Of a stretch of DNA of 64,000 nt, positions 7,039 through 29,075 are shown piece after piece; position 1 is the first letter of the stretch, and every line of letters starts with the position of its first letter. Where the stretch lies: positions 310,001-374,000 of the forward strand of contig WHUZ01000010.1 in the NCBI GenBank assembly GCA_015179045.1, read 5' to 3'. Both the position numbers and the translations under genes were made by a program. The notes below the pieces were generated by a model that had not been told where the DNA came from, made no database searches, and was given only the letters and a program-made list of their open reading frames with translations. The DNA is from Kalaharituber pfeilii. Lineage: Eukaryota > Ascomycota > Pezizomycetes > Pezizales > Pezizaceae.

Positions 7039-7824
7039 TTAGTAGATAATTTTAAGGATGAGATCCACCACCCATGGTGCAACAATTTCCAACACTTTAC
7101 CAGCTGCCCAGCCACCAATGATGCTCTTCAAGATCTTCTTCAAAGCACCCTTGATCTTGTTCTTGAGCCAATTCCTGTGTGCCGGAGTAATCTTGCTGAG
7201 AGTCTTGGCCTTGCTCTTGAGGTACTTTACAATGGACCTTCGCAGGCCACCACCAAGTGCATTCCAGACTTTCTTGGCAAGGGATGACTTGCTGATCTTC
7301 TTGAGGAGGATCTTAATGATCTTGTCAATAATCCCACGTCTCTCAATGTAGTCACGGCGCTCAAGTGCTGCATCACCATCATTACCATCGTCCTCTTCTG
7401 GGAGATTGAGAAGGCCGCGGAGGAATTCCTCCTCCTCAGGGTCAGCAAGCTTCACAGCATCGTTATCATCCTCTGGGATCTCTGGGATATCGTTATCGTT
7501 CTCGTCACGGCGCTCAAGGGTGGCATCGCCATCATCATCATCCTCTTCCGGGAGATTGAGAAGGCTGCGGAGGAATTCTTCTTCCTCCGGATCGGCGAGC
7601 TTCACAACATCATTCTCATCCTCTGGAATGGCAGGGACGTCTTTATCGTCTTCCTCAACTGGGACTGCAGGCTCTGGCACTGCAGCTGGAGCGGGCTCAC
7701 GTTTGGCGAGAGTTGAGTCTGCAACCTGGATATCGCGGGCATTGATCTCGACTGCCGGGATGACTAGGGCATTAACGGCAATGATTGAGAAAGAAATAGC
7801 GAGGAAGGCAGGGGTGTACTTCAT
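7039..7824 (-). CDS. Secreted Kex2-processed cationic peptide precursor, copy 1 (261 aa)
   Basis: I start it at MKYTPAFLAI, because that start is shared by all paralogs; 21 further in-frame codons upstream are not conserved. Residues 1-20 are a signal peptide. A KR lies at 41-42. Residues 58-156 are two acidic repeats, each of the form IPEDxNDxVKLADPEEEEFL followed by LPEEDD and closed by LERR (a Kex2-type dibasic site). Then DYIERR ends at 163, and residues 164-261 form a 98-aa mature region without cysteine, starting GIIDKIIKILLKK and ending VVDLILKIIY. It has many lysines and few acids, and is helical-amphipathic by eye. The acidic part probably neutralises the cationic part until cleavage in the late Golgi. 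A membrane-active or antimicrobial role is inference; I recognise no named family. Confidence 0.85.
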   Translation of the reverse strand: MKYTPAFLAISFSIIAVNALVIPAVEINARDIQVADSTLAKREPAPAAVPEPAVPVEEDDKDVPAIPEDENDVVKLADPEEEEFLRSLLNLPEEDDDDGDATLERRDENDNDIPEIPEDDNDAVKLADPEEEEFLRGLLNLPEEDDGNDGDAALERRDYIERRGIIDKIIKILLKKISKSSLAKKVWNALGGGLRRSIVKYLKSKAKTLSKITPAHRNWLKNKIKGALKKILKSIIGGWAAGKVLEIVAPWVVDLILKIIY

Positions 7825-8015
7825 TCTGAATATGCTTTGGGATTCGAGGTAGGGAATTGACAGAGAAAATATTTCAAACTCGCTCAAATTAAAGCTGTGG
7901 ATTTGATACTCAAATGAAGTGGGGAGGAGGGAAGGATGATGTGATGTGAAGGACAGGTTGATTTTTCGGTGGATGGTGAGGGGAGAAGGAAGCAGTTGAG
8001 GAGGGAACTTGAGGT

Positions 8016-8024
8016 CTCTTTATA
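8016..8024 (-). promoter_or_regulatory. TATA box of secreted-peptide gene 1
   Basis: TATAAAGAG on the minus strand lies about 192 nt upstream of the start codon. The same sequence occurs at matching positions upstream of the copies at 15313 and 21577, within an upstream region conserved among the copies. Confidence 0.55.
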
Positions 8025-8239
8025 GACGTCCTAAGGCTTATGATTGTGTGATACTCCTAAAGAAACATCATAGCGGTATGCTGTACTCATTGCCCTGGCG
8101 AAAAGCAGGACTGCGCAGACCAGATTGTGCGAGTGTAACATGCAGATCGATGGCAGCATAGAAATCTCACATCTCGCGCATCTCCGTGAGATTGTTCAGT
8201 TGAGCACAAGTTCGCGAGGCACCATGTCGGTGAGGCTGG

Positions 8240-10690
8240 TTCAGCAAACCATGGTCAATGCAATTCGGGGATTGCGTGACTACTGCATTGGTCGTTGAAG
8301 TCTTGTTGCATTGCTCTGTTCGAATTAGGTAATTGAAACTAGGGTTAAGCTAAGCCCTCCTGCTCGGCTGCCCCTTTGTCCCCCGGGAATGCCGAACGTC
8401 ATTACAAGTACTGCGGCTTGCCCGTGAAGAAACGACCAATCAGCGTTTAATTTCACAGCGCATTAGAGATTGACAGTGGCTCATATTTGCAAACATGTTG
8501 AAACATTGTCGACTCTACACACATAAGGTGATTATCCCTCATCCCGAATGGTTTATCTTAAGACTCATGTCGCTTATGCGTGGCACCATTGACCTACTTG
8601 TGTAACCACTTTTAGGGTTAAGCGATTCATAAAACACGGGCGTGCCCTGCACACCATGTAATTCGACAATTCAATATCATGCCTATTACTTCACACCAAT
8701 CAAGTGAGCTCTACATCCCATAACAGGATAACTAGGCACAAATCTGTGTGCGAGCAAGGAACCATCCTGTGGACCTCAGATTTTGATGCAGGGGAGAATA
8801 TTCTGTACTCTACAGATGTGGCTGCCGTCATCGTAGCACAGGCGAACCTGTCATCTTGGATCCTCTATAACTGGCTATCCTGCACGGAGTATTGGATCAA
8901 TCCACGCGCCCCAAATTTCCTTCTCATAAGGCAACGTCTTTAAGTGGATATTTGGATATATTGGATATGAGTGCGGTCCCGCGCTGGTCGAATACGAGAG
9001 GCTCTACTATAAGCATTTGTTATGATTTGTTCGGTGTTTTCCGGGTGTTGATTATTCAAGGGGCAGCGGATGGGTATGAGAACAGGACAGGGGACAAAAC
9101 TAAGGTTAATGTTGCTGTAATTTTGAACGTTGACCTATAAATGTCGTATGGGAGATGCGGCTAGTGCTGCGGTGCTACTACCGTAGCACTAGGGTCTTGG
9201 CATTAGACTAGTAGGCACTTAGGTACACCCTCGCGTACCACCACGATTACCTAGTGTCAGCTAAACAGCAAGGCAAATCTCAACAAGACTATTTACCATT
9301 CTAGAATTTTTCCTAATTCAGCCGATCTCCTGTATTAACAACTCGTGCCTGCTTTCTTCCCGTTACGGAAGTTACATCGGAGTGCTGGTGAAAAAGTGAA
9401 CTTTACCTAAAAAAAAAAATACATAATATGCCGAGAAATAAATATTTACTCTCCACTCTGTGTGTGCAGCAGATACCTAGCAAATGTTTGTCGACCGCGC
9501 AGTTCATATTTTGTTTAGGACAGCGCTTCAACGTTAAATGCCCCATGTCATGCAATTTCAAGTCAAATGTCATATCCAGTGGCTTCAATGTTACACCCAA
9601 TATATTCTCAAAGTGGAAAAATACGAGGTGGCACAGCTTCATCCAATGCTATTGTCTATCAGCAACGTTGCACAAGAGTCTCGACCATTAATTGCATAAT
9701 ACATAAGCCCATTTCAGTGTTGTTAGACACAGGGTGAGGCAACGGAATCCCCGTTGGACCCCACCTAGCCGTTGCGCATCAAGCAACTCAATTTGCTGTG
9801 ACTTGGGAATGTATTATGGTGTAACGTTGCAGCACAATTAAATGACGTGAGATGAATCGCGTAACATGTGCGGGGCTGATGTTGGTGTAGCTGTTCCATC
9901 TCGGAGTAACATTTGAGCGCTTTCCCGTACGATCATGTTTGACAAAACGGTGATCGATAACCAAAAGCCTAGGAACTTGTGTGTTGCAAACATACAGGCG
10001 GTGATAAAGGATGTGATTCTCATCGCAGTTGCTATTTTGCTTTACCTTTGTTCCTTCCATTTTCTTGATTTGCGATTTTCTACTACGTTTGTTTTTCTCA
10101 GAACGCGGATGTGGCATTCGTGATGACAAGAAGGCAGTCATGATTTGAATACGGCTAGGGTGATGAGGAACTGAATTAGAAACAATTCTAAATGTCAATT
10201 CCTGTTCTGTTCTTGTTCAGACAGCCTTGCTATACTGCAACTAGTTAATTACCCTATCAGAATAATGCAACTCCTCTTTGGGAGATAGTGCAACCAGGCT
10301 TGGTTTCCAGGTTAATAATGGCCGTAGTATAGGTAGGTACATGTGCGTAGCACAGCAGCGATAGCCACCATTCTACATGCCCTCATGTAACATGTCTCCC
10401 CGGGCCAAAGGTAAAGTTAAGGTTTCAAAATTAAGGTTAAGGCGATTTCTCGGCATGATTTACACTACGGAAATGGACCGAGGAAGGCGTAACGGACGCA
10501 TGGTAAGACGGTGCATTTATATTTTTAGAGAAATGAACGTTAATCCCCTGTATCACATCTGAGATCCATGTCAGGGTCCTGGCTCCCACACAGCCTTATC
10601 CCTGGTTACATGTGAGATGTGCAGCTGTCACTTGATTGGAGATGGAGTAATAGAGACAGCGATTGAACTGTAAAATTCTACGTTCCACAG
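8240..10690. other. Intergenic sequence, no supported gene; parts shared with other copies of the cluster
   Basis: No ORF here is convincing. Sections around 9090-9190 and 9590-9700 resemble 16860-16960, 17510-17600, 13500-13600 and 23400-23520 (for instance the GCTATTGTCT...GTTGCACAA block). They are therefore distal parts of the same segmental duplication that carries the secreted-peptide genes. Confidence 0.5.
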
Positions 10691-10693
10691 GGC

Positions 10694-10850
10694 AGTTTTT
10701 TTTTTTTTTTTTTATTTCATTACTCGCGTGCCGCCCTATGGGCTATGGCGAGGTATATATAAACTAAAGAAAAGAAACTAAATCACTAAATACATGTGTT
10801 TCCCGCGTGTCCTTCGTGATGCGGGTAGCTTCCACCCAGAGCCCGTTTTT
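10694..10850 (-). mobile_element. LINE family-1 3' end
   Basis: Poly(T), then ATTTCATTACTCGCGTGCCG and CCCTATGGGCTATGGCGAGG, followed by about 100 bp of the 3' UTR type with ACATGTGTTTCCCGCG, the reverse-complement pattern of the ORF1-only LINE 3' UTR. No clear target-site duplication was found. Confidence 0.75.
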
Positions 10851-11716
10851 CGGAATCTTTTGACCTCAGCTTGACACAGACCAACAAGTGATACACAAGT
10901 TGATGTCAATGCTGCTGTGCAAAGATGCCAATGGACGTGAGTCTTGTAAGTTTTCTAATGAGGGTTTTCACAAGGCATGGCTTGGACATGACAATATTTC
11001 AGCATGGTTGCAAATATGAGCCATTGTCAACTGCGAATATACGATGAAAAACAGATGCTGATTGGTGATGTCTTCATGGCTTAGTCGCAATATCTGTAAT
11101 GACATTCGGTATTCCCGTGGGCGCGGTGGATATGACCCGCCCTAGGCTTGGTGCAACGTTGAGAGGGCATAGCTTAACCCTTACCCAACTCAGACTGAGT
11201 AATGCAAGCAACTTGAAGATTGTATGCAAAGGCGGTGGTGTAACAGTTTTCAAAGTGCATCGACCCCGGTTCGTTGGAAGGGTCGAAAACGAGCCAGACG
11301 AACTTGTGCTCAACCTCCCAAATTTACGGAGATACGCGAGATTAGAGATGACTACGCTGATGATCTGCATGTTACATTGAACATCTGGTCCGAACCAGAG
11401 TCTCTTCCTTCACAGAAATTCTATTGTATTGTAGTACCTACAATAGACTGGTAAAATGTTTATGCCTTTATGAAAGTAGACTCAATCAATGGCCCTCAAA
11501 CATCTATATCAAGACTGACGTCCCTCGTCAATCGCTTCCTTCTTTCCTCATGACCCATCCAACAATCAATTCTCCCTTCACATCGTCCTTCGTTCTGGGC
11601 AACTTCATTTGAATATCAGCAACGCAGCTTCAGCTTACAAAGCCTTTCAGTCTCCATTTCTTGGAACAAGCCGTTCTTCAAGTGCCTGCCTACCACAAAT
11701 CTAAAGCAGATTCAAA

Positions 11717-12367
11717 ATGAAGTTCACCACAGCCTTCCTCACTCTTGCTTTCTCCGCCATCGTTGTCAGTGCTCTTGTCATCCCGGCAGCTGAGGTCAAC
11801 GCCCGCGATATCCAAGCCGCAGACTCAGCTCTTGCCAAACGCGGTGCTGCTCCAACACCTGCTGCAGCCCCTGAACCTCCTGCACCCTCTGTGGGCCCAG
11901 TCAAAGATGATGATGAAGATGTCCCTGAGGTCCCAGAGGATGACAGTGATGCTGTTAAGCTCGCTGACTCTGAGGAAGAGGAATTCCTCCGCAGCATTGC
12001 CAATCTCCCAGAAGAGGATGGCGATGATGATGATACTGGACTTGACAGACGTGACTACATTGAGAGACGTGGGATTATTGACAAGATTATCAAGATCCTC
12101 CTCAAGAAGATCAGCAAGACCTCTCTTGGCAAGAAGGTCTGGAATGCAGTTGGTGGTGGTCTGCGAAAGTCCATCGTCAAGTACCTCAAGAGCAAGGCCA
12201 AGACTCTCAGCAAGATCACCAAGGCAGACAGGAATTGGCTCAAGAACAAGATCAAGGGTGCTTTGAAGAAGGTCTTGAAGAGCATCATTGGTGGCTGGGC
12301 AGCTGGTAAAGTGTTGGAAATTGTTGCACCATGGGTGGTGGAAGTTATACTTAAGATTATCTACTAA
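11717..12367 (+). CDS. Secreted Kex2-processed cationic peptide precursor, copy 2 (216 aa)
   Basis: The start MKFTTAFLTLAFSAI matches copy 3. Residues 1-20 are a signal peptide, KR is at 41-42, a short Pro/Ala-rich linker follows, and one acidic repeat spans about 64-110 (DDDEDVPEVPEDDSDAVKLA). LDRR (109-112) and IERR (115-118) precede the mature region 119-216. This 98-aa part has 22 Lys and 2 Arg against 4 acidic residues, no Cys and three Trp, with helices such as GALKKVLKSIIGGWAAGK. It lies convergent with copy 3 and divergent from copy 1. Its TATA-like sequence (CTATATCAAG near 11504) differs from the TATAAAGAG of the other copies. The intact frame and conserved spacing argue for a working gene. 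Function is inferred only from architecture. Confidence 0.87.
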   Translation: MKFTTAFLTLAFSAIVVSALVIPAAEVNARDIQAADSALAKRGAAPTPAAAPEPPAPSVGPVKDDDEDVPEVPEDDSDAVKLADSEEEEFLRSIANLPEEDGDDDDTGLDRRDYIERRGIIDKIIKILLKKISKTSLGKKVWNAVGGGLRKSIVKYLKSKAKTLSKITKADRNWLKNKIKGALKKVLKSIIGGWAAGKVLEIVAPWVVEVILKIIY

Positions 12368-12389
12368 ATGTGATGCAAGGTTGTGGATG

Positions 12390-12440
12390 GTAAGTTGCTA
12401 TTCATTCACCGGGTTCATTGGACATAAATGCTGACGACAG
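12390..12440 (+). other. Predicted 3'-UTR intron of secreted-peptide gene 2
   Basis: GTAAGTTGC begins 22 nt after the stop codon. A branch-like GCTGACGACAG ends at the AG at 12440. Position and motifs match the introns predicted for copies 1, 3, 4 and 5. Confidence 0.55.
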
Positions 12441-12512
12441 ATAACAGTTCAACCTGCATATGCATCGTTGTACAAATCGCAAACAATTTTTCTCAAGATG
12501 AAGGGCGGTATT

Positions 12513-12560
12513 GGAATGCAGACAACTATCTAGTCCACAATGGACTCCAGCTTTCCTATT
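12513..12560. repeat. Conserved downstream block of the secreted-peptide genes
   Basis: GGAATGCAGACAACTATCTA and the following GTCCACAATGGACTCCAGC are the reverse complement of blocks at 6832-6870, 15127-15165, 21366-21405 and 24881-24920. All lie about 150-210 nt from the stop codon of their copy. It could be a 3'-UTR element or simply the result of duplication. Confidence 0.55.
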
Positions 12561-12660
12561 CTTTATTTTATGGCCTTAAAGTTTTCTATTCCAATTTCCA
12601 CTTCTTCCGGGGGTATATATACAGAAAAAGAGATGGTATGCTGGTTTGGTTGTAATCTGG

Positions 12661-13088
12661 ATGTGTAATTTGGTTTGCGGCAGCTCTTGGTTCTTTTTCT
12701 TTCTGATTTAAGTTCGTTTTCCTACCTTTTCTTCGCCTTTGCTTGTGTCTCAGAAGCCGGATTCCTACTGTTGAGGATTAGGTTGGGTCGAACGAGGGGA
12801 ATAATTCCATGGAGTTGCAAGATGTTTTGCTGTGGTACCAGATTGTTAGTTTTTAGTTATTAGTCAAATTTGAAGGCCTTCCTCAGGAACTGACTTTGCT
12901 TTGCCATATGGAACTTCAGCAGAAGAGTACATTAACTATTTACCATATCCGGTAGGACGGACAGGTGGAGCGGATCTCGGAGTGTCGGAGGAGAGTCCGG
13001 GGAAGTAGCGCAAGCCAGTGATCGCCAGTGGTGGAACAGTCATGGAACACCTCCAAGAATCGCAACAGCAGGGAAGTATCGCGGCTGA

Positions 13089-13090
<2 letters not shown>
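12661..13090. other. Intergenic, nothing recognised
   Basis: No conserved ORF, RNA gene or repeat end seen. Confidence 0.5.
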
Positions 13091-13129
<39 letters not shown>

Positions 13130-13200
13130 CAGTGATCGCGTGCCGCCCTCGGGGCTACGGCGATCTTGTTATATAGGAGATAAAGTATGGAAAAGAGAAA
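13091..13200 (-). mobile_element. LINE family-1 3' end with ATCGC/GCGAT outer stem
   Basis: A run of 34 T is followed by AATATCAGTGATCGCGTGCC and the reverse complement of ATCGCCGTAGCCCCGAGGGC. The outer stem has changed from CTCGC/GCGAG to ATCGC/GCGAT with both sides altered. No target-site duplication was found. Confidence 0.75.
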
Positions 13201-13785
13201 AGAAAAAACAAATAGTTGAAAAATAATGATGAGTACATGTCCTGTTCCATCCCCGTCATGATCTGGCTTTTGATGTAATGGATAATAGCAGTTCCTCGCC
13301 AACGTTGACAGGTATAGGCGCAGAACTTAGTACGGGTAAGTGACGCCTCACTGACAACAGCAATTTCCCTGCATAACGTTGACTTTCTCAACGAATATAA
13401 AATTTCTCAATAGTGGAAAACATGTACAATATCCTTCGCACTCGATCAGACTTGCAAACAGCAAAAACTCTGACTAACTTTCGTAAAGGTAGTGGGGCCA
13501 CAGTAGTAACAAAATACAAGAGACGCAACTTCACACAATTCTATTGTATTTCACGTTACACGAAGAGGGTCAACGATTGCATAAGCGCTTTTTACATTTT
13601 GGGTAATGGATTATGCTTATAGTTCCACCTATCAGTCTTAGAGAGGTAACGAACGGGCGCCTTGGCTCCTTACCATGGAGTTTCCAGTTTTAGCAAGGAA
13701 TAACTTACAGAGTATATCTCCTCTATGTCCGATGAATTAGTTATGGGCTACACTAACTGCGCTGAATCTAGATATGAAGGGGAAT
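13201..13785. other. Intergenic, duplicated cluster flank
   Basis: The part around 13500-13610 (ACACAATTCTATTGTATTTC) resembles 17518-17590. No gene supported. Confidence 0.45.
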
Positions 13786-13912
13786 TTTTTTTTTTTTTTT
13801 AATATCATTAATCGCGTGCCGCCCTAAGGGCTATGGCGATGTTTAGTTACATATGAAATAAAGGAAAGAAAAGAGTATAGTCGAGATCCCCGGATCCTCC
13901 TGTGTGGCGGGG
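13786..13912 (-). mobile_element. LINE family-1 3' end
   Basis: T run, AATATCATTAATCGCGTGCC and GCCCTAAGGGCTATGGCGAT; the outer stem is of the ATCGC/GCGAT type. A short GGGGAA repeat on both sides is a possible, weak target-site duplication. Confidence 0.7.
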
Positions 13913-14516
13913 AAGTAACAATTTACCGCAGAAAAAGAAAGGATGTTGCCCGTGATTGTTTCTGAGTTACAGGCTTATGAAAAGAAAAGGTTCAAGTCCG
14001 TCTCCTGCCCCATTCATACTTGCACGACTTTAACCATCTCTCTTCCAGTCTCACTCTGCCCAGTGTTGGTTCGATCCGTTCCTCGAGATACACCACCACC
14101 GAGCTGGTGAGCGAAGCGACGGTACTAGAGCAGGAGATTCGTTTAATTCTTTTCGGACTGAGGCATAACTTGGTAGAGTGGTATGATAGGGGTAACTATA
14201 GGGCAGGCATTGGCGAAATATAGAATTGACGATTCCAGCTCGGGAAGAGTATATTGTCCAATAAACTAAATTAAATAAGATGAACTATAATCCAGTAATA
14301 TAAGGGAATCAGGACGATCCACGTTCCGTTTGTTTTTGCATTCTTGCCTCAATACTCGTATGCAGCGCTAGTGAACCATCAAGAGGCACTAAGACCCCTT
14401 TTGTTTGTGCTCCTTGCCATCAGACACAGATAATTGCTATCGTCAGTTACGCATTCAAATATCTAAATATGAGAGCACCTGCACTTCCCAGCAAAGACTT
14501 CAAATTTTGAGTAACG

Positions 14517-14852
14517 TCACTGACCGGGATCCGGCGCATTACCGGGATCCGGCGCACTTCCGGAATTAAAACAACAGCGCCCCGTAAGGCCAAATCGTCA
14601 TAGAAGATTACCAAATTGCACATACAGATTGGAGATGTATAGGAAAGTAACTTCCGCACCTCAGTTAGCTAATTGTAAATTTGAATGATACTCTATGGTG
14701 GCAGTTGCCTAATCAGGCGTCTGAAGCCTATGCAGGTATAAAATGGCAAGATAGCAATTTAGGACCTTGAGCAAGTGCATATACCTTCTATAGTATGTAT
14801 TCAAGAGATTTGGAATGTTTTATGAGGTAATGCGCCGGATCCCGGTCAGTGA
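14517..14852. mobile_element. MITE with inverted terminal repeats (336 bp)
   Basis: The left end CACTGACCGGGATCCGGCGC is repeated inverted at 14828-14852, and the CCGGGATCCGGCGCA unit occurs twice at the left end. This doubled CCGGGAT...GCGCA layout resembles the ends of the pogo element at 56867-59043, so the MITE may be a non-autonomous relative. There is no coding sequence. Target-site duplication is not clear. Confidence 0.65.
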
Positions 14853-14869
14853 TGTTAGATAAAAACTAA

Positions 14870-15231
14870 CAACTGAGTAGTACAGCAAAATTCCCACCGT
14901 TCATAACATTATTCTCCTAGTGCGACGCAACCGAAATCCTCAAGTACAGCAAAAATCCTGTTGAAAGCGACAAAAATCCAGTAAAATCAAGGAGAAAGGA
15001 AACCAAGAGCCACCACAAACTAAATCCCAGATCCAAATGAAACCCAAACCAATATGCCATCCCTTTTTGTATATACTCCCAGAACAGTTGAAATAACTTA
15101 AACTCATTAAATAAAGAATAGGAAAGCTCAAATCCGTTGCGGACTATGTGGTTGGCTACATTCCATCCCCGCCTTCATTAGTTGATTTCCGATTGTACAA
15201 TTATGTACTTCCCCGTTGAGCGTTGCATGTC
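14870..15231 (-). repeat. Downstream flank of secreted-peptide gene 3
   Basis: Shares blocks with 6590-6950 and 21110-21490, including GTTGCGGACTATGTGGTTGG at 15133-15152. No separate gene seen. Confidence 0.6.
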
Positions 15232-15290
15232 CTAGCATTCTAAAATCAGTTTCATTTCAAATAAGTCCGGCTTCATTAATGTTAACTTAC
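15232..15290 (-). other. Predicted 3'-UTR intron of secreted-peptide gene 3
   Basis: Minus-strand GTAAGTTAAC donor 22 nt after the stop codon, branch-like AACTGATTTT, and AG acceptor in AATGCTAG. Confidence 0.55.
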
Positions 15291-15312
15291 TGCCCCTAAT
15301 CTGACATTGCAT

Positions 15313-15969
15313 TTAGTAGATAATCTTGAGTATAACTTCCACCACCCATGGTGCAACAATCCCCACCACCTTACCAGCTGCCCAGCCACCAATGATGCTC
15401 TTCAAGACCTTCTTCAAAGCACCCTTGATCTTGTTCTTGAGCCAATTCCTGTCTGCCTTGGTGATCTTGCTGAGAGTCTTGGCCTTGCTCTTGAGGTACT
15501 TGACGATGGACTTTCGCAGACCACCACCAACTGCATTCCAGACCTTCTTGCCAAGAGAGGTCTTGCTGATCTTCTTGAGGAGGATCTTGATAATCTTGTC
15601 AATAATCCCACGTCTCTCAATGTAGTCACGTCTGTCAAGTCCAGTATCATCACCATCACTATCACCATCCTCTTCTGGGAGATTGGCAATGCTGCGGAGG
15701 AATTCCTCTTCCTCAGGGTCAGCGAGCTTAACAGCATCACTGTCATCCTCGGGGACCTCAGGGACATCTTCATCATCATCCTTGATTGGGGCCTCAGAGG
15801 ATGCAGCAGGTTCAGGGACTGCAACAGGTGCTGGGGCTGCATCGCGTTTAGTAAGAGTTGAGTCTGCAGCTTGGATATTGCGGGCGTTGACCTCAGCTGC
15901 TGGGATGACAAGTGCACTGACAGCGATGGCGGAGAAAGCAAGAGTGAGGAAGGCTGTGGTGAACTTCAT
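15313..15969 (-). CDS. Secreted Kex2-processed cationic peptide precursor, copy 3 (218 aa)
   Basis: Nearly identical in plan to copy 2: signal peptide 1-20, KR at 41-42, an Ala/Pro linker, one acidic repeat (DVPEVPEDDSDAVKLADPEE), LDRR then DYIERR ending at 120, and a 98-aa cysteine-free lysine-rich region 121-218 ending WVVEVILKIIY. Differences from copy 2 fall mostly in the linker and acidic part (for example a DGDSDGDDTG insertion), while the mature region is almost unchanged, as expected if the mature peptide is the selected product. Long open frames on the opposite strand are shadows of this gene. Confidence 0.87.
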   Translation of the reverse strand: MKFTTAFLTLAFSAIAVSALVIPAAEVNARNIQAADSTLTKRDAAPAPVAVPEPAASSEAPIKDDDEDVPEVPEDDSDAVKLADPEEEEFLRSIANLPEEDGDSDGDDTGLDRRDYIERRGIIDKIIKILLKKISKTSLGKKVWNAVGGGLRKSIVKYLKSKAKTLSKITKADRNWLKNKIKGALKKVLKSIIGGWAAGKVVGIVAPWVVEVILKIIY

Positions 15970-19183: not shown

Positions 19184-19196
19184 AGCATGACAGCGC

Positions 19197-20015
19197 ATGG
19201 AGACGAAGGGGGAGTGGGAAGCCGCGATCGGGGAAGCCGGAAGAAAAAGGGCAGTCCTTTTCTCCGACGGCAGCAAGATCGAGGACAGCAAGGTGGGAGC
19301 AGGAGTGTGGGGGAGGTCGGCTGCGGTGGCGGAGGTGGTGGGGAGAACGGCGACGGTGTTCGATGGGGAGGTGAGGGGAGTGAGAAAGGCGCTGGAGAGT
19401 GTGGAGGAGGAGGTCCCTGTACTGATCTGTTTAGATTCTGAGGCTGCCGTCATGGCGATCCAGAAGGCAGGCAGGGAGGGAAAGGGGAAAACCGAGGATG
19501 TGAGGAGAGTGGTGGATGCCGTGGCGAGGAGGAAGAAGAAGGGAGGGGATGCGAAACTGATGTGGGTCAAGGCTCATATCGGAATTGCAGGGAATGAGAA
19601 GGCTGATGAGTGGGCAAAGAAGGGGACGGCGGTGGAAGGGAAAGAGGTGGCCACCGGGAGCGGGGTGCGCCAGAGGATTAAGGCGTGGAGGAAGGAGAGG
19701 AGGGAGGTGGAAGGTTTCGGGAAGGGGAATGTAATGGAGTGGAATAGGACAGCGGTGTCCAACTTCACAGCATTACGACTGGAGAGAGGAAGATGCAGGG
19801 TGTGGTTGAAGAGGATGGGAGAGGCGAAATCGGAGAAGTGCAGCTGCGGGGAGGCCCAGACGGGGGTGCACCTAGCCTTCCAGTGCAGTCAGCAGAGGTT
19901 TCGCCCAGAAGGCTTCAGAGAATGGGGGGATGTGGAAAAGAACTGGAAAAGGACGGCAGAGAATGGGGAGGAGTGGGATGAGTTGGAAAGGTTCTTTTCC
20001 GGGATCAAGTTTTAG
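19197..20015 (+). CDS. LINE ORF2 C-terminal part: RNase H domain and zinc-finger-like tail (partial)
   Basis: The frame is open from the 5' truncation point to its TAA. Motifs in order: LFSDGSKIEDSK (first Asp), FDGEVRGVRKAL (Glu), LICLDSEAAVMAIQKA (second Asp), and LMWVKAHIGIAGNEKAD (His and last Asp), so all four RNase H catalytic residues are present. The tail has CSCGEAQTGVHLAFQC, a CCHC-like arrangement common at the ORF2 end of Tad-like LINEs. The apparent ATG coincides with the insertion junction by chance. The reverse transcriptase and endonuclease portions are missing, so the fragment is not autonomous. Confidence 0.85.
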   Translation: METKGEWEAAIGEAGRKRAVLFSDGSKIEDSKVGAGVWGRSAAVAEVVGRTATVFDGEVRGVRKALESVEEEVPVLICLDSEAAVMAIQKAGREGKGKTEDVRRVVDAVARRKKKGGDAKLMWVKAHIGIAGNEKADEWAKKGTAVEGKEVATGSGVRQRIKAWRKERREVEGFGKGNVMEWNRTAVSNFTALRLERGRCRVWLKRMGEAKSEKCSCGEAQTGVHLAFQCSQQRFRPEGFREWGDVEKNWKRTAENGEEWDELERFFSGIKF

Positions 20016-20406: not shown

Positions 20407-20410
<4 letters not shown>

Positions 20411-20599: not shown

Positions 20600-20705
20600 G
20601 ATGCCTGTCTGCGGGCTATAAAGATTTCGGTCCATGAAACCTGCCATGGTAAATAGCTGCAAGTGAGGTTACATGGTTACAAACAAATAAATGAAAAATA
20701 AAAAG
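20600..20705 (+). mobile_element. Older LINE family-2 3' end
   Basis: GCCTGTCTGCGGGCTATAAA, CCTGCCATGGTAAATAGCTG and AAGTGAGGTTACATGG precede an A-rich tail. The order matches the 3' end at 20300-20375, with more substitutions. Confidence 0.65.
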
Positions 20706-21494
20706 GCATTACAGTTATGGTCGGCAATCCCTATGGTGTTGTTTATATAGATACTAGTGGAGTCAGTTATTGATCACATTGTAGTCTGGTTGCACAGACC
20801 CTCTGACCGTAACATTGCTGTACTGTAGTTTACATCGTCGTCGGACAGGTCGGGACAGGGTTCTCAACCAGTTTCAGGCGGGAAAACACGTACATGTGTC
20901 AATATTTATCAATTAGGCCCAAATTGAATCTATAGCGTCAGGTATATAGAATTTAATTCCGCACTTTTGTTCCCCAATTGGGGCGCAATGTTCTATTTAG
21001 TCGCTGATATCGTCCGCACTACTAAATATAAAAGTAAATTCAGCTCCCGAGAGAAGAATTCAATTTGAACTAGTTAACTAACTACGGCAGCAAAGTTTTC
21101 CAATTCCACGAAACTCTCCCCTATTACCATCCAAGCAAAATCTTGAAAAGTAGGAATTCCGCCTCTGAGACATCAGCAGAAGGAAATGAAGCAGAACGCG
21201 GTGACATCAAGAGGAAAGGAACCCAGAGCCATCACAACCTTAAAACCAGAATCCAGATCCAAATCAAATCCAGACCACTATACCATTTCTTCTATGTATA
21301 TACATTACGTCCAAAACAGGTGAAAACAGAAACCTAAGGCCGCAAGATGAGGAATATGAAAGCTGGAGTCCATTGCGGACTATGTGGTTGTCTGCATGCC
21401 TATACCACCCGTCATCCTGAGAACATTGATTGTGATTATAGCATCATCCATTTGCAGGCTGACCTGTCAACTGTGGCTCCTAGATTGTGATGCC
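20706..21494 (-). repeat. Intergenic and downstream flank of secreted-peptide gene 4
   Basis: 20990-21490 shares blocks with 6500-6950 (CAATTTGAACTAGTTAACTA and, at 21366, GGAGTCCATTGCGGACTATG). Nothing recognised at 20706-20980. Confidence 0.55.
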
Positions 21495-21553
21495 CTAGGA
21501 TTTTGAAATCAGTATTTTGTCACATAAGCCTGTCTCGGTTGGTCGTAGCTTAC
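21495..21553 (-). other. Predicted 3'-UTR intron of secreted-peptide gene 4
   Basis: Minus-strand GTAAGCTACG donor 23 nt after the stop codon, branch-like TACTGATTTC, and AG acceptor in AATCCTAG. Confidence 0.55.
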
Positions 21554-21576
21554 CACCCACAAGCCTCACATCGCAT

Positions 21577-22353
21577 TTAGTAGATAATCTTGAGGATGAG
21601 ATCCACCACCCATGGGGAAACAATTCCCAAAACCTTACCAGCTGCCCAGCTGCCAATGATGCTCTTAAGGACCTTCTTCAAAGCACCCTTGATCTTGTTC
21701 TTGAGCCAGTTCTTATGTGCTTTGGTGATCTTGCTGAGAGTCTTGGCCTTGCTCTTCAAGTACTTGGTGATGGACTTCCGCAGGCCACCACCAAGAGCAT
21801 TCCAGACCTTCTTGGCCAGGGATGTCTTGCTGATCTTCTTGAGGAGAATCTTGACAAGCTTGTCAACAATCCCACGTCTCTCAATGTAGTCACGGCGTTC
21901 AAGTGCTGCATCGTCATCATCATCATCCTCTTCCGGGAGGTTGGCAAGGCTGCGAAGAAATTCCTCATCCTCAGGGTCTGCAAGCTTCACAACATCGCTC
22001 TCATCCTCTGGGATCTCTGGGATGTCTTTATCATCGCTCTCACGGCGCTCAAGTGCTGCATCATCGTCATTGTCATCATCATCATCATCATCCGGGAGAT
22101 TGAGAAGGCTGCGGAGGAACTCTTCTTCCTCAGGATCAGCAAGCTTCACAGCATCGTTCTCATCCTCTGGAATTTCAGGGACGTCTTTATCATCGTCCTC
22201 GATTGGGGCCACAGCCGGAGCAGGCTCGCGTTTGGCGAGAGTCGAGTCTGCAGCCTGAATATCGCGGGCATTGATCTCGACTGCCGGGATGACCAGAGCG
22301 TTGACGGCAATGACTGACAAGGAAACAGCGAGGAAGGCAGCAGCGTACTTCAT
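21577..22353 (-). CDS. Secreted Kex2-processed cationic peptide precursor, copy 4 (258 aa)
   Basis: The start MKYAAAFLAVSLSVIAVNAL is chosen by alignment to the paralogs; 18 upstream in-frame codons are not conserved. KR is at 41-42. Like copy 1 it has two acidic repeats, the first ending in a run of aspartates and LERR, the second in LERRDYIERR. The mature region is 161-258, again exactly 98 residues, starting GIVDKLVKILLKKISK. The HPW-less end reads IVSPWVVDLILKIIY. Aspartate-codon (GAT/GAC) runs suggest the acidic repeat can expand and contract by slippage while the mature length stays fixed. Function as a membrane-active secreted peptide is inference. Confidence 0.85.
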   Translation of the reverse strand: MKYAAAFLAVSLSVIAVNALVIPAVEINARDIQAADSTLAKREPAPAVAPIEDDDKDVPEIPEDENDAVKLADPEEEEFLRSLLNLPDDDDDDDNDDDAALERRESDDKDIPEIPEDESDVVKLADPEDEEFLRSLANLPEEDDDDDDAALERRDYIERRGIVDKLVKILLKKISKTSLAKKVWNALGGGLRKSITKYLKSKAKTLSKITKAHKNWLKNKIKGALKKVLKSIIGSWAAGKVLGIVSPWVVDLILKIIY

Positions 22354-22510
22354 TTTGAATATGTTATTGGATTCGAAGTTGGGACTCGGCGGAGCGATTG
22401 GGTCCAATATTCAAAAGAAGTTTTGAGAAAAGAAGGAAGATGTGACGGGTGATTGTTTGTTGGGTGGGTGGTGAGGAAAGAAGGAATGGGTTAATGAGGG
22501 AATTTGAGAT

Positions 22511-22519
22511 CTCTTTATA
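22511..22519 (-). promoter_or_regulatory. TATA box of secreted-peptide gene 4
   Basis: TATAAAGAG on the minus strand about 158 nt upstream of the start codon, in the conserved upstream region. Confidence 0.55.
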
Positions 22520-22674
22520 GAGGATCGAAGGCCACTTATTGCGCGATTATGATATTCACGAACAAACATTGTAGCAGTATTCTGTATCTAATCAAAACCA
22601 TAGCATTTCGGTGAAGTCCAGGACGGCTGCTCAGACGGGGTGTCCGGTGTAACTGGAAATTGAGCCGGTCTCGC

Positions 22675-22735
22675 TGCCCTGCCATGGCGAACAGCTACAA
22701 GCGGGGTCACGTGAAATAAAAAAAAAAAAAAAAAA
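22675..22735 (+). mobile_element. LINE family-2 3'-terminal micro-insertion
   Basis: TGCCCTGCCATGGCGAACAG through GCGGGGTCACGTGAAAT and an A tail, flanked by GAGCCGGTCTCGC at 22662-22674 and 22736-22748. It lies in the upstream flank of secreted-peptide gene 4. Confidence 0.92.
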
Positions 22736-22959
22736 GAGCCGGTCTCGCATGTCGCGCATCTCCGTGAGGTTGCGAGGCGGAAATAATGCCGCGAGGCTCA
22801 TTTTCTGACAACGGTTACAATAAACATGGGTTGACGCCATTTGAGGACCGGTTGACTAGCCCATGGGCCATGAGATCTTGTTTGCATCGCTCGCTCTGAG
22901 TTGGATAATGTAAAATTAAATTGAACCTAGGCGCTGCCGCCCGGCTACCCAAGCCTAGG

Positions 22960-23232
22960 GTGCTATCCCTGCTTGCCGCTCCTACGGGCATGCCGAGCGA
23001 CTACGGTTAAGCCGTGGAGAACTCCGAGACTCACGTCCATTCGCGCCCATCGCCCAAGCGCGGCAGCATTAACAGCTACTCGCGTACTCGCGTTCTTCTC
23101 CAACTGCAAGTTTCGAACTGGCGTTGGAGGCCCTTTGTAGACCATATAAAGACAGTTCAATGGCCTTATCCCTGGTATAACTGTGTACGGTGTTACGTGA
23201 CCCCCCCCCCCCAAAAAAAAAAAAAAAAAAAG
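22960..23232 (+). mobile_element. Probable degenerate LINE family-2 3' end
   Basis: TGTTACGTGACC, a C run and an A run resemble the family-2 terminus. The preceding sequence is unrecognised and no duplication was found. Confidence 0.4.
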
Positions 23233-23982
23233 GGCTTTAGAGCTCGGTATCGGGGACAAGTATGTGCATGAGGCAGGAAATGTAGAGTACTACAGATCTC
23301 GGATCCGATACAGGGGAGAATGTTCAGTGCCCTGCATATACATGCGGCGTCTTATTATGTGTCATGTTTACATCTTCTTCGGTCATTTCCGAACTGCAAG
23401 GGGCAACGGAGATAACCGCGTTAACCTTAATTCGAATGTTAACGCCTACCGTACCCGTGGTTCAGGATACATGCACATGAGGGGTGGGGAATGCATGTAG
23501 ATCGGCGGATAGCGCTGCCGTGCTGGGCAATTCCACTGTAGAGGACCGCCATGATTAACCTGGTGGCCGTTGAATTATTCCGATAGGGCAATTAATCCGC
23601 TATAACATAGCATATATTCCAATAGTAATATTGACGAATCGCTCGAATTGCTGTATGGTTTGATGTATTCGATCGACGAATGTGGCTCAGGATCGCAGTG
23701 GGTTCGGTAGTGGCAAGAGACAGCGGAAGTCTCAAATTGTCTTGGCATCAATATTTCCCACAGTTCCCTGTGGACCACACACAATTTCTCCAGTAGGCAT
23801 TAGCGACATCTGTCATCGCAGAATATATAGCAGACTGGGCTGAGTATGCCAAGAATATTTGACAAGCACGCTCTGAAATACACGGTTCGTAAAGTCAATG
23901 TTATGCGCAGAAATATAGCAAGATAAGTACTAGTACCCTTGCATAATAGTAGGATAGCAGCAGTAAACTCCCGTTCCCGGTA

Positions 23983-24110
23983 TAAGTGTTCTGGTCCCTT
24001 TGGAAATTCAGTCCGCTCCGGAGTGGGCCGGCCCCTTCGGGAGGTCGGTCGTGCGGGAATCAGTATTTTTAGAGCTTGGGAATCTCGGCGTAATGAGCGT
24101 AATGATATTG

Positions 24111-24142
<32 letters not shown>

Positions 24143-24510
24143 AGATCGGGAATTAAACGTACTTTCTGGCAGGCTTCAACATTTGTTGAAAATCAACTAT
24201 GTACTTTTTTTTTTTCGGCATAAGTAACGGTATACAAGAAAGAACAAATAGAAATATATTAAAATCTACAGATAATTATTTCGTCTTACATATTTTCAAG
24301 CTCTGTTACTGAATGCTCACGAGACGATTAAATCGAAACATTTCGACGGGCATGTGGATGACAAGTGATAAAGCATTTCTGGGAATTTTGGATACATGGG
24401 CATCTCTGGGTCCACGACTTAATGTGAAAGATTTTTCATATACCCGAGTGCCCGGTCCTCTCTCCACTCCGGAGCAGCCTGAGTTTCCGACAGGACCAGA
24501 ACATAAGCAT
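23983..24510. repeat. Inverted repeat pair, possible MITE
   Basis: GTGTTCTGGTCCCTTTGGAA with GCTCCGGAGTGG on the left reappears inverted at 24445-24505 (CCACTCCGGAGC, GTTTCCGACAGGACCAGAAC). A LINE-type A tail has inserted between the arms. Ends and target duplication are not defined. Confidence 0.45.
24085..24139 (+). mobile_element. Short LINE family-1 tail
   Basis: GCGTAATGATATTG plus a run of about 26 A matches the last nucleotides of the family-1 terminus; most of the hairpin is absent. Confidence 0.55.
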
Positions 24511-25011
24511 ATGTTCCATAAAAGCATATTACCTCCGCCACAAGGTAGAGTTATAACGGAATTTTTCTGTATAGGAAGGAACCAGCTCGCCAGAAAAGAT
24601 TTCAATTTTAACTAGTTAAGTAATTACTGAAGAAGGTTTCCTCCAAGCCACGAAATTAGCGCCTATATTACCATCCAACCAATCATGATTGTCAAACCTA
24701 GGAAGCCTGCCTCTGAGAAATTAGTAGATCGCAAAAGAGTAAAAGAAAGCCAACAGCCATTACGAAAACCAGATCCCAGATTCTATGTATATCTAGACCA
24801 ACATGCTATTGCCTTTGTTTAATCGAGTACAACCAAATGAAAAAATCGTAGGATTACGAAATCGAGAATAGGAAATCCGGAGTTAATTACGGACTATATG
24901 GTTGTCTATATCCCAAAACCGCCCTTTCCGATTATACATTTGTGCCTTCGAAGGTGGACCAGGTACATATGTATTGTTCATTGTCCCTACCTTGTCATAG
25001 TCTAGCATTGT

Positions 25012-25059
25012 AAAGTCAGTATTATTTCAAAACTCGTGTTTGGATTGATTACACCTTAC
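25012..25059 (-). other. Predicted 3'-UTR intron position of secreted-peptide pseudogene 5
   Basis: Minus-strand GTAAGGTGTAATC donor, ATACTGACTTT branch-like motif and AATGCTAG acceptor are kept even in this pseudogene copy. Confidence 0.5.
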
Positions 25060-25154
25060 CACATGTAATGTTATATCGCATTTGGTAGATAATTCGAAGG
25101 ATAACATCCACCACCCATGGTGCAACAATTTCCAGCACCTTACATACCAGCTGC

Positions 25155-26527
25155 TAGTGAGCGGCACGAGCCGAGCCAGCCCACGCGAGCTTGAGACAGC
25201 CAAGATTACGCTAGTGTTTCTCTTTTTTTTTTTTTTTTTTTTTTATATCATTACTCGCATGCCGCAGTGTTTCTCTTGACAGCTCGCTAAAATGCTTAGC
25301 CAGCGCAGGGTTTCATAAACTGTAAATACCTAACATAGTAATAAATTAGAGACTCAGAGCTCATTCCGACCTGCCAACAACTTCTATAAATATCAAAAGT
25401 GGTTCAATTATATAGACCTATATCAAAGTCTTTTATGTTTAATATCTCTCAAGGCCTTTAGAAGGTAAGTTGCATATTGAAAGAGTATATATTAGGCCTC
25501 TCTATTCTCTCTATCCTCTTGAAATTCTTTTCTCTTTACTACTACCCAATATCAAGACTTCAAGACTCATACTATGCTTCGAGACCCTTAATCCTCATAC
25601 TACACTTCAAGATTCTTGTTCCTTATACTATATTAGCAATTTATCAATATGACAACCAATTCTATATCAATTTATAATGCCTTTCTTGCCAGCCTAGCTG
25701 GCCAATATTCTTTAGTTAAAGATCAGCATACTGTTTTGAACTCTTATCATCATAGTTACCTGTATGAAAGATGTATGATTTTGTGGTGAAAAATATCAGA
25801 TAATGAGCATGAAATTTTATATGTGTGTATTGTTTCAAGACTTGGCACGTCAAAAGCTGTACAACAACCACATCCATGTTACTTCACTATTTTCAGAAGT
25901 TACATGCATCAGTTCCACTTTTGCGTCAGCTAGTAAATGCCACAGAATTAAAGCAACGAAGACCATTTGAGATGATGGTTCCAACAAAGCGAGCTAAACC
26001 AGAGGGCTTTTCCGAAACACGTATTGTGAACTCCTTTGCCGCTTTCTTATCTCAACGAATTCACCAATCAAACTAGCAGAAAAGGCATCATTTCTAGAGC
26101 TCCTCCACCCCAAAGTTCGAGCCGGGATGTCGCCAAATCTAGACCGCATGGCATGAGAGTATTTAGCAATACCTGCCTCCTCTGTCCCCTCCGAACAGAT
26201 ATTCTTGCAGGTAAGTATTTCAACATAATACTATCTCTAGCTAAGCTGACAATTTCCTACAGGCAGGCGAAGTTCTCAACATACGCCGAAACAGAATGGA
26301 AGGTGAGACTATGAGCGCTATCATGTGCTACTGAATTTAACAGATAGCAGTGATAAGGATGAAGCTGTAGAATAGTTTAGATTAGTTATTAATATCATGT
26401 AATCAAGGCTCGCTGGCTCGAGCCTACCTTCTATTTGACGAGCTCGGCTTGAGCCGAGCTCACTAACTCACGAGCTGGCTCGAGCTCACCCTCCAGCTCG
26501 GCTCGAGCTAGCTCGTGCCGCTCACTA
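25155..26527. mobile_element. hAT-type element with 8-bp target-site duplication
   Basis: The ends are TAGTGAGCGGCACGAGC and its inverted match GCTCGTGCCGCTCACTA, flanked by CCAGCTGC at 25147-25154 and 26528-26535. An 8-bp duplication and a TAGTG end fit hAT. The inside is AT-rich; a short plus-strand frame at 25825-26076 (HYFQKLHASVPLLRQL...) could be a transposase remnant but lacks the usual hAT motifs. Related copies lie at 43646-44036, 50427-51970 and 54416-54992. Confidence 0.85.
25225..25265 (-). mobile_element. LINE micro-insertion truncated within the hairpin
   Basis: T run plus ATATCATTACTCGCATGCCGC only, flanked by AGTGTTTCTCTT at 25213-25224 and 25266-25277. About half the terminal hairpin is present. 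Confidence 0.9.
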
Positions 26528-26779
26528 CCAGCTGCCCAGCCACCAATGATGCTCTTAAGGACCTTCTTCAAAGCACCCTTGATCTTGTTCTTGAGCCAAT
26601 TCCTGTGTGCTTTGGTGATCTTGCTGAGAGTCTTTGCTTTGCTCTTCAGGTACTTAGTGATCGACTTGCGCAGACCACCACCGAGTGCATTCCAGACTTT
26701 GAGAAAATCAAGAACACACATACCTAAGGGGGACACTAACCCACCGAAACCCCCTACCTCTAGCGGTTCTTCCCACCAT

Positions 26780-27620
26780 CCCAGCAGATACTGAAAAGGA
26801 GGAATGGGAAAGAGCAATCGCCGATGCCGAGGATGAAGGATGGAACAGCTTCTACACAGACGGTAGCCGAATAGACAGCACCACCGGAGCAGGGTCATAC
26901 CACAACAAAAAACGACCCTCCAGATACCTCGGCACCTCAGCACGGTGAACGACGCAGAGTTGATAGCCATGAGCGACGCACTGTCAAGCCAAACAGGCGA
27001 GTTACTTATCATCGCCGACTCTAAGGTAGCTATAAGCAAGCTCCAGAAGATAGCCAACGGAGAACCTACACACGAGGGCTAATGACGCTGTTAACAGGGG
27101 TTGAGCGGCTCAAGGGACTGATAGGAAACACAGACGAAGAACACGGCACGGAAACACTGAGACACAGAGGTCACAGATCTGGCATTCGCTAAGGTTGTTC
27201 TAGTTACAAAAAAATGGAGCGGAAGGGCCTCTCAAAAAGTCCCCCTCAGAACACAAACTAATTTCATGAGAGCGTCATATGCAAACGGGAATCAGTGTTT
27301 GTACCCATGCCGTTTGCAGTTTGCTCCATGCATACCATTTCAAGTATTCCTCCGTTTACTCTATGCACCTACCCTCCTGCAACAGGGCGCATCACAACTG
27401 GTTAGAGAGAGATGGGAGTCGAGAGCAGAGCGAGGCGACCTAGACGTAGCCGTGATGTGTGTAAAAGGACACAAGGGAGTCACAGGCAACACAGAAGCAG
27501 ACAGGGCGGCAAAACTCGGGGCATTTCTACAATATCAAGACGAAGTCGTCACGGAGGCGGGAATGAGACAGCAATCAAGGTCACACAGAGCCAACGAAAG
27601 AAACAGACCAATGAATCCAA
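26780..27620 (+). pseudogene. LINE ORF2 RNase H fragment, frameshifted and interrupted
   Basis: The plus strand reads WNSFYTDGSRIDSTTGAGSY, then after a frameshift NDAELIAMSDAL and LLIIADSKVAISKLQK. After the insertion at 27081-27386 it continues VRERWESRAERGDLDVAVMC and VKGHKGVTGNTEADRAAKLG. The RNase H catalytic residues are recognisable but not in one frame. Confidence 0.8.
27081..27386. mobile_element. About 300-bp insertion in the LINE RNase H, type unknown
   Basis: The RNase H reading is interrupted between EPTHEG and the sequence coding for SQLVRERWE. The insert begins near TGACGCTGTTAACAGGGG and ends near CCTCCTGCAACA, so a small solo LTR is possible. Only a weak GGGC repeat at the edges was seen. 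Confidence 0.4.
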
Positions 27621-28160
27621 CAGGCCAGGCCGGCCGACCAGGCCGTGATCTGCATTGGACTGAAACCGCCTGGACCGGCCTGATCCACATGAATCAGGCC
27701 AACCAGGCCAGTCCAGGCCAATCTGGCCGGTTCGGGCCATTCAGGCCGGTTCAGGCCAATTAAACGAATCACTCCACAGCTATCCAGCTGAATTGAGGCC
27801 AGCATTTACCAGATTGTTTGAGTATTTAGATGAGTAGAATCTCCCGTATGTCTAGAATTTTAAACAGCAGCGGTCTACGACTTTTGTCAAGTATGTATCA
27901 CACTTTGTATTCAAGTATATATACTAAGAAATATTTTAGAAATGATCGACCTTCCAGATAATACAACAGACTGGACTCAATTCTTCGATGATGATACCTG
28001 ATGCGCAACTGTCAATTACTGATAGTGGAAATATCCAGGACTATTAAAATCTAATTCACCTGGGTTAAATTCCAAAATCGCTTAAATTTACGTAAATGGC
28101 CTGGTCGGCCTGGACTGGCCTGAATGGCCTGGACTGGCCTGGTTGGCCTGGCCAGCTCTA
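27618..28160. mobile_element. GGCC-rich terminal repeat element, related to the hAT at 41609
   Basis: Both ends are dense in CAGGCC/GGCCTG units (for example GGACTGAAACCGCCTGGACC at the left and TGGCCTGGACTGGCCTGAAT at the right), inverted to each other. The same pattern, including TGAAACCGCCTGG, forms the ends of the element at 41609-42862. The CAGTGTT tips of that element are not seen here. Confidence 0.55.
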
Positions 28161-28162
28161 CG

Positions 28163-28338
28163 GAAAGTCTCTGTACCAAGTTGCCGTTTCGAAATCAGAC
28201 ATCTTGGGCACAGCAGCAAAGAAGGATGACGATACCAAAGGCGAGACTAAGGCAAAAAGTAAGAAGGATGCTGCTGGAGCTGCAGCAGGGGCGGCAGCGG
28301 CAGCACAACCGCCAAAGGGGGGGGTGTTCTCGTTTTAA
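28163..28338 (+). pseudogene. C-terminal fragment of an unrecognised protein
   Basis: The frame reads LYQVAVSKSDILGTAAKKDD then a Lys/Ala-rich tail (KSKKDAAGAAAGAAAAAQPP) and KGGVFSF before TAA. It sits between transposon pieces with no upstream exon in sight, so it looks like a carried-in gene end. Family not recognised. Confidence 0.35.
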
Positions 28339-28344
28339 GGGGAT

Positions 28345-28573
28345 GAGAGGGGGAGGAGGACCCACTGAAGAAGCTGGTAGAGATGCTTGGGTAGTGAGGA
28401 GACCCGTTTCGTTAATGTTACCTTCATCTATTCTTTCTCGCTTTATTTATTTATCTTCATTTATGTACTTAAGACATCGCCATAGCCCGTAGGGCGGCCA
28501 GCGATTAATGATATTAAAAAATAAATAAATAAATAAATAAATAAAATAAAATAAAATAAAATAAAATAAAAAG
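28345..28573 (+). mobile_element. LINE family-1 3' end with degenerate A-rich microsatellite tail
   Basis: A GGACCCACTGAAGAAGC piece like the ORF2 end at 34535-34560 is followed by 3' UTR, ACATCGCCATAGCCCGTAGG with an ATCGC/GCGAT stem, and a tail of (AAATA)n/(AAAAT)n repeats. Confidence 0.7.
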
Positions 28574-28721
28574 TTCCTAAACTTTTCCTTTGACGGTTTA
28601 TCGAGTATCGCTTTGACTGCATTTGCTTGTTTAACTATTTCCTTTCCCTTTGACGGTTGATCGAGTATCGCTTTTACTGCCTTTGTTTAATTATCTCCTT
28701 TAAACTCATGCAACTAAACCT

Positions 28722-28761
28722 CGCCATAGCCCAAAGGACTGCATGCGAGTAATGATATAAG

Positions 28762-28794
<33 letters not shown>
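28722..28794 (+). mobile_element. LINE family-1 terminus and poly(A) at the edge of pseudogene copy 5
   Basis: CCTCGCCATAGCCCAAAGGA...GCGAGTAATGATATAAG and about 35 A end exactly where the secreted-peptide sequence resumes with ATTCCAGACCTTCTTGG. Confidence 0.85.
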
Positions 28795-28797
<3 letters not shown>

Positions 28798-29075
28798 CCA
28801 GACCTTCTTGGCAAGGGATGCCTCGCTGATCTTCTTGAGGAGGATCTTGACAAGCTTGTCAACAATCCCACGTCTCTCAATATAGTCACGGCGCTCAAGA
28901 GCATCATAATTATCATCATCATCCTCTTCTGGGAGATTGGCAAGGCTGCGGAGGAACTCCACATCCTCAGGGTCGGCAAGCTTCACACCATCGCTCTCAT
29001 CCTCTGGGACCTCGGGAACATCTTCATCGTCATCCTCAACTGGGCCCACAGAAGTTTCAGGGGATTCAGGGGCGC

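What the first reader, a model, noticed from the sequence alone, without database searches (positions are those of the whole stretch)
7039..29075. Cluster of cysteine-free, Kex2-processed cationic secreted peptides
Seen: four intact paralogs and one pseudogene share signal peptide, KR, acidic pro-region, RRDYIERR and a mature part of exactly 98 residues. In the 216-aa copy the mature part has 22 Lys and 2 Arg against 4 acidic residues, no Cys, and helix-like spacing. Known: fungal Kex2 cleaves after KR/RR, and acidic pro-parts often mask cationic membrane-active peptides. Inference: an antimicrobial, cytolytic or self/non-self peptide family. I know of no matching described family.
Basis: partly seen in the sequence, partly recalled or inferred. 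Interest (0 to 1): 0.88.

Follow-up and report, generated by a model that had tools for sequence, protein, structure and literature searches.

The report
Truffle family of secreted cationic helical proteins
A desert truffle carries a family of duplicated genes for a secreted, strongly positively charged, cysteine-free small protein that is predicted to fold into a five-helix bundle, is made behind an acidic pro-part that offsets its charge, and has no relative that we could find in another organism; it is most likely antimicrobial or membrane-active, but nobody has tested it.

Summary
The window is from the desert truffle Kalaharituber pfeilii: four intact paralogs and one broken copy. Each intact copy has a signal-peptide-like start, KR, an acidic pro-part, RR-DYIERR and a 98-residue cysteine-free mature part of net charge +20 to +22. 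I count 24 copies in the assembly, alleles included: 16 intact ORFs, 3 with an altered C-terminus, 5 broken. Intact copies are under purifying selection (dN/dS about 0.2; 0.08 for the mature part of a divergent pair). New here: (1) the mature part is predicted with high confidence as a five-helix globular bundle; (2) a 23-residue core of the pro-part is as conserved between two divergent subfamilies (65%) as the mature part (62%), while the pro-sequence on either side of it is 26% and 21%; (3) in the eight single-module subfamily-A ORFs that keep the final RR, pro and mature charges cancel to -1..+1. Three searches of 5.8 billion proteins returned only K. pfeilii; there was no significant Pfam, NCBIfam, PDB or viral-fold match. 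Best reading (inferred, 0.5): a secreted antimicrobial or membrane-active bundle kept inert by its pro-part. A symbiosis effector is the main rival; a self/non-self role is not supported. Expression, cleavage and activity are untested.

The parts
7039..7824 (-). intact precursor gene, 261 aa, two acidic modules; mature part 7042-7335
11717..12367 (+). intact precursor gene, 216 aa, one acidic module; mature part 12071-12364; NCBI model BDZ91DRAFT_791937 has a different C-terminus
11948..12016 (+). conserved 23-residue pro-core (residues 78-100 of the 11717 gene), predicted short helix at residues 85-95
   Evidence: coordinates computed from the residue numbers
15313..15969 (-). intact precursor gene, 218 aa, one acidic module; mature part 15316-15609
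21577..22353 (-). intact precursor gene, 258 aa, two acidic modules; mature part 21580-21873
28795..29211 (-). broken copy, first piece (signal, pro-part and start of mature part)
26527..26700 (-). broken copy, second piece (middle of mature part)
25085..25147 (-). broken copy, third piece (C-terminal end)

Best explanation
These genes make a secreted, disulfide-free, cationic five-helix-bundle protein that most likely acts on the membranes of competing or associated microbes. SHOWN: a coding family under purifying selection; dibasic sites kept in most copies; a conserved acidic pro-part with a specially conserved core; a confident prediction of a five-helix mature part. INFERRED: signal peptidase, then kexin at KR-42, at the first RR and at IERR, free the 98-aa protein. 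Before cleavage the acidic pro-part cancels its charge, and the pro-core helix docks on or shields it, so that the producing cell is unharmed. Once freed, at +20 to +22, it binds anionic microbial surfaces; its cationic helices 1-4 and its neutral, most hydrophobic helix 5 then open in the membrane, as has been proposed for saposin-like peptides (passages of PMC6072434).
For: Net +20 to +22 and no Cys in all four window copies. Five helices at mean pLDDT 91.1, pTM 0.77. Helix charges +3, +3, +5, +7, 0, helix 5 the most hydrophobic. Of 98 mature positions 46 are invariant over 12 A and B rows: 24 of 41 hydrophobic (ILVWYFM) and 11 of 22 Lys, so a core is kept as well as charge. Pro plus mature charge is -1..+1 in 8 of 8 single-module subfamily-A ORFs that keep the final RR. 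Pro-core 65% identical between A and B against 26% and 21% on either side. dN/dS 0.21 in the mature part of 28 A pairs, 0.08 in the B pair. Cys-free helical-bundle bacteriocins are a precedent for such proteins acting on membranes.
Against: No expression, cleavage or activity data. No homology to any antimicrobial family and no fold match. The amphipathic signal is weak in subfamily B, and whole-helix moments are modest in helices 2-5 (0.38, 0.29, 0.23, 0.34). Charge balance is not general: -3 and -5 in B, -4 and -3 in C63 and C348, -16 to -18 in the double-module genes. The pro-core helix is predicted only at pLDDT about 60, and its docking is not shown.
Confidence: 0.5

Rival explanations
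1. A mycorrhiza-associated small secreted effector: the bundle acts on the host plant, outside or inside its cells, to aid root colonisation, and its charge serves to bind walls or membranes.
For: K. pfeilii is among the mycorrhizal fungi of PMC7550596, and 31.2% of symbiosis-induced genes there are species-specific, many of them small secreted proteins (passages). The family was found only in K. pfeilii.
Against: No sign of the fast change often seen in host-targeting effectors; dN/dS about 0.2 in every region of the A paralogs. A charge-offsetting pro-part with a conserved core is not needed for this role. No mycorrhiza expression data were seen.
Confidence: 0.2
2. A non-lytic polycation: a secreted structural, storage or polyanion-binding protein, for example of the fruit body, spore or cell wall, packed with its acidic pro-part for solubility in the secretory pathway.
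For: High Lys content, charge-offsetting pro-part, many copies, purifying selection.
Against: A specific hydrophobic core and a five-helix fold are kept; a plain polycation would not need them.
Confidence: 0.18
3. A selfish killer element: a toxin with its own antidote in the precursor, spread by duplication among transposons.
For: 24 copies on many contigs with decayed ones among them; transposon domains nearby; the conserved acidic pro-core could act as antidote.
Against: Both haplotypes of the cluster carry intact, nearly identical genes; strong purifying selection; I noticed no separate antidote ORF beside the seven other copies whose ORFs I listed (read by eye).
Confidence: 0.07

Closest known systems
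[quoted passage not shown]
   Same: No cysteines, several amphipathic helices packed to a hydrophobic core, thought to act on membranes (passages of PMC6072434)
   Different: Bacterial; here a signal peptide, an acidic pro-part and dibasic sites, a longer product, no sequence match and no fold match listed
Saposins and saposin-like peptides (NK-lysin and kin)
   Same: Four or five helices, lipid binding
   Different: Those mostly carry three disulfides; here no cysteine at all
Candidalysin from Ece1p
   Same: Fungal precursor cut at dibasic sites to free a membrane-active product (passages of PMC5784256)
KEPs, Kex2-processed repeat proteins
   Same: Secreted precursors cut at KEX2 sites
   Different: KEPs were called only with at least three repeats (passages of PMC6339444); here one product and one or two acidic modules
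Defensin-type precursors with acidic pro-parts (recalled; search listing only)
   Same: Acidic pro-part offsets a cationic product
   Different: Those products are cysteine-rich; this one is all-helical and cysteine-free

Membership tests
KEP (Kex2-processed repeat protein) | at least three internal repeats separated by KEX2 sites | tested here: not met
   one mature part, acidic module once (12 of 16 intact ORFs) or twice (4 of 16); threshold from passages of PMC6339444
kexin-processed secreted protein in general | dibasic site directly before the product, and a kexin in the genome | tested here: met
   14 of 16 intact ORFs; P-domain match 65.4 bits on C13 (this domain also matched one of 14 control genomes, an archaeon, so it is not proof alone) beside a subtilisin-type stretch (motif recognised from memory). 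Cleavage itself not tested
secreted protein | N-terminal signal peptide | tested here: inconclusive
   hydrophobic stretch and A-x-A-like end seen by hydropathy and by eye; no predictor run
saposin / saposin-like peptide (SAPLIP) | conserved cysteines forming disulfides | tested here: not met
   0 Cys in the mature part of all intact ORFs counted (C348, which that script did not score, shows none)
saposin-like-fold bacteriocin | cysteine-free bundle of helices | tested here: met
   predicted five helices, no Cys
saposin-like-fold bacteriocin | two helices in a V with a third nearly perpendicular | tested here: inconclusive
   no coordinates were available; fold searches listed no such protein
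saposin-like-fold bacteriocin | match to known bacteriocin family models | tested here: not met
   no match at the cut-off in Pfam or NCBIfam with 4 proteins each
defensin-type fungal antimicrobial | cysteine-stabilised fold | tested here: not met
   no Cys
antimicrobial protein | inhibits microbes in vitro | not testable with these tools
   needs an assay
mycorrhiza-induced small secreted protein | induced in mycorrhiza | not testable with these tools
   no expression data at hand

The most novel reading that the evidence does not exclude
An undescribed, lineage-restricted eukaryotic counterpart of helical-bundle bacteriocins: a disulfide-free, globular five-helix membrane-active protein that a truffle secretes as a self-neutralised zymogen, in which a charge-matched acidic pro-part with a conserved inhibitory helix (doubled in some genes) keeps the product silent until kexin cuts it.
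Probability: 0.35. Interest if true: 0.75.

Novelty: new variant of a known kind. Interest (0 to 1): 0.6.

Why it matters
If true it adds a new, cysteine-free protein scaffold to fungal secreted antimicrobials, whereas fungal effectors are typically described as small and cysteine-rich (passage of PMC9438471). It gives a testable case of a toxin zymogen, with a pro-core helix as the proposed inhibitor. It may also bear on a reported peptide antibiotic of the desert truffle Terfezia claveryi (Janakat et al. 2004; only the title seen, in the reference list of PMC12649337). The family is hardly visible in public annotation: in the three protein searches no named public model appeared for three of the four intact window genes; the model of the fourth has another C-terminus, and the broken copy sits in a fused model.

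Tried and rejected
Chance ORFs: rejected. In 28 pairs of eight intact A paralogs dS exceeds dN in all five regions, and Fisher tests give p 7e-4 (mature part of three allelic pairs), 2e-7 (mature part of the B pair) and 4e-10 (whole B pair).

Diversifying self/non-self family: rejected for lack of any dN/dS excess among intact copies. Highest values: 0.82 (pro-part, 11717 against C337_76k), 0.66 (signal peptide of three allelic pairs, on one change per pair on average) and 0.77 (mature part of the three C19-type copies, which have lost the final site and the C-terminus). The spacer of A against C19-type copies gave 2.79, on about 1.5 changes, and was not taken as evidence. A-against-B dS is near or beyond saturation.

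Relatives elsewhere: none confirmed in viral contigs, prokaryote genomes, or plasmids; three protein searches gave only K. pfeilii. In some searches only the 7,997 and 7,995 candidates sharing most words were scored, and I ran no positive control that other Pezizaceae are held, so 'only in K. pfeilii' means in this database at this sensitivity.

Uninformative: the bacterial promoter scan; the loose paper search (104,983 papers at two terms, 5 listed, none with Kalaharituber). Codon bias as a sign of expression was considered and not done.

Full report
WHAT AND WHERE. The window is C2:310001-374000 of a 78-Mb, 360-contig assembly. Its 11717 gene matches the NCBI protein BDZ91DRAFT_791937 of Kalaharituber pfeilii at 100% over 94% of the query, and the contig lengths listed for other K. 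pfeilii hits equal those of the assembly (C1, C19, C190, C304). The organism is therefore this desert truffle.

FAMILY SIZE. The search of the own genome gave 36 matching stretches, which I group by place and by reading the frames into 24 copies, alleles counted apart. Sixteen are intact ORFs: four in the window, four on C337, two on C344, and one each on C63, C294, C348, C1, C35 and C304. Three (C19 twice, C326) have an open frame but another C-terminus and RH in place of the final RR. Five are broken (C79, the window copy, C296, C190, C224). C337 is the other haplotype of the cluster in reverse order: its collinear stretches over 1 kb are 94-97% identical to the window, and cross-matches between paralogs of over 1 kb are about 82%. 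C63 and C348 share 6.1 kb at 97.3% and are probably alleles. C344:253210 and C304 form a divergent subfamily B, 52% and 55% identical to the query, on a fully supported branch, with a 100-residue mature part behind LEKR. A search with a B member brought no further subfamily. On C337 the partners of the 11717/15313 pair encode identical proteins, which suggests gene conversion.

SELECTION. Among eight intact subfamily-A paralogs (28 pairs, Nei-Gojobori) dN/dS is 0.29 in the signal peptide, 0.19 in the pre-part, 0.24 in the pro-part, 0.26 in the spacer and 0.21 in the mature part; the mature part of the B pair gives 0.08; three window/C337 pairs give 0.20 in the mature part. These are conserved proteins, and the intact copies show no region of diversification.

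PRECURSOR DESIGN. In 14 of 16 intact ORFs a dibasic stands directly before the mature part. A kexin-like gene is present: Pfam PF01483 at 65.4 bits over 56 of 86 positions, with a subtilisin-type stretch beside it (motif recognised from memory). The pro-part after KR-42 is strongly acidic. In the eight single-module subfamily-A ORFs that keep the final RR, pro charge (-19 to -22) plus mature charge (+20 to +21) sums to -1..+1; the sum is -3 and -5 in B, -4 and -3 in C63 and C348, and -16 to -18 in the four double-module ORFs. Exact balance is thus a property of one group, not a law. A 23-residue pro-core (residues 78-100 of the 11717 gene) is 65% identical between A and B, as much as the mature part (62%), against 26% and 21% before and after it, 27% in the pre-part, 35% in the signal peptide and 48% at the RR spacer (8 single-module A rows against 2 B rows, gaps counted as differences; the C337, double-module and C19-type rows left out). 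In the full-length model (mean pLDDT 64.8) the core holds the only helix of an otherwise low-confidence pro-part, residues 85-95 at pLDDT about 60. I infer that it docks on and silences the mature part; this is not shown.

RELATIVES AND LITERATURE. Three searches of 5.8 billion proteins returned 6, 8 and 8 proteins; each bears the name K. pfeilii except P0002, which the window itself encodes. Pfam, NCBIfam, PHROGs and PDB sequence searches gave no match at cut-off or significance. Nine paper searches were run; none of the titles and abstract starts listed describes this family. I saw passages only of PMC6339444, PMC7550596, PMC13127573, PMC9438471, PMC6072434, PMC5784256 and PMC12649337, and of the others only listings. 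The repeat survey's minimum of three repeats would exclude these genes.

MECHANISM. I commit to a secreted membrane-active or antimicrobial bundle with a self-neutralising pro-part (0.5): high charge with a conserved hydrophobic core, no cysteine, a charge-matched pro-part with a conserved core, purifying selection as expected for a generic membrane target, and the precedent of cysteine-free helical-bundle bacteriocins. Against it stand the lack of expression and activity data, the lack of any homolog, and the weak amphipathic signal in subfamily B. A symbiosis effector (0.2), a non-lytic polycation (0.18) and a selfish killer element (0.07) remain possible.

Noticed in passing
window 37574-38062 and 53245-53721 (+): Two similar unexplained frames (LLGILTVYVPQLGAS...; similarity seen by eye) without a Pfam match: another paralogous pair.
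   Followed up: partly
window 46337-47131 and 47507-49378 (+): Frames rich in ankyrin repeats (Pfam Ank_2 E 5e-34 and 2e-161) with near-identical repeat units.
   Followed up: partly
window 10696-10772, 13108-13184, 13784-13860, 25227-25303, and others: Poly-T-headed repeats sharing a GC-rich core (D7, I10, I14, I15): they look like poly-A ends of retroelements; RNase H frames lie at 19197 and 39463.
   Followed up: no
window 56164-58288: Transposase domains: MULE (+) and DDE_1 (-).
   Followed up: no
window 28161-30631 (-): Public model BDZ91DRAFT_807050 (P0009) fuses an unrelated upstream frame with a piece of the broken copy.
   Followed up: partly
precursor residues 43 onward, after the first KR: The start of the pro-part in most A copies (EAAPAPAAAPEP) is made of X-Ala and X-Pro pairs, the kind that dipeptidyl aminopeptidases trim in some secreted precursors (recalled, not tested).
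   Followed up: no
L015 (C294) and L026 (C190): The broken C190 copy reads nearly as the intact C294 copy (by eye) and may be its allele.
   Followed up: no
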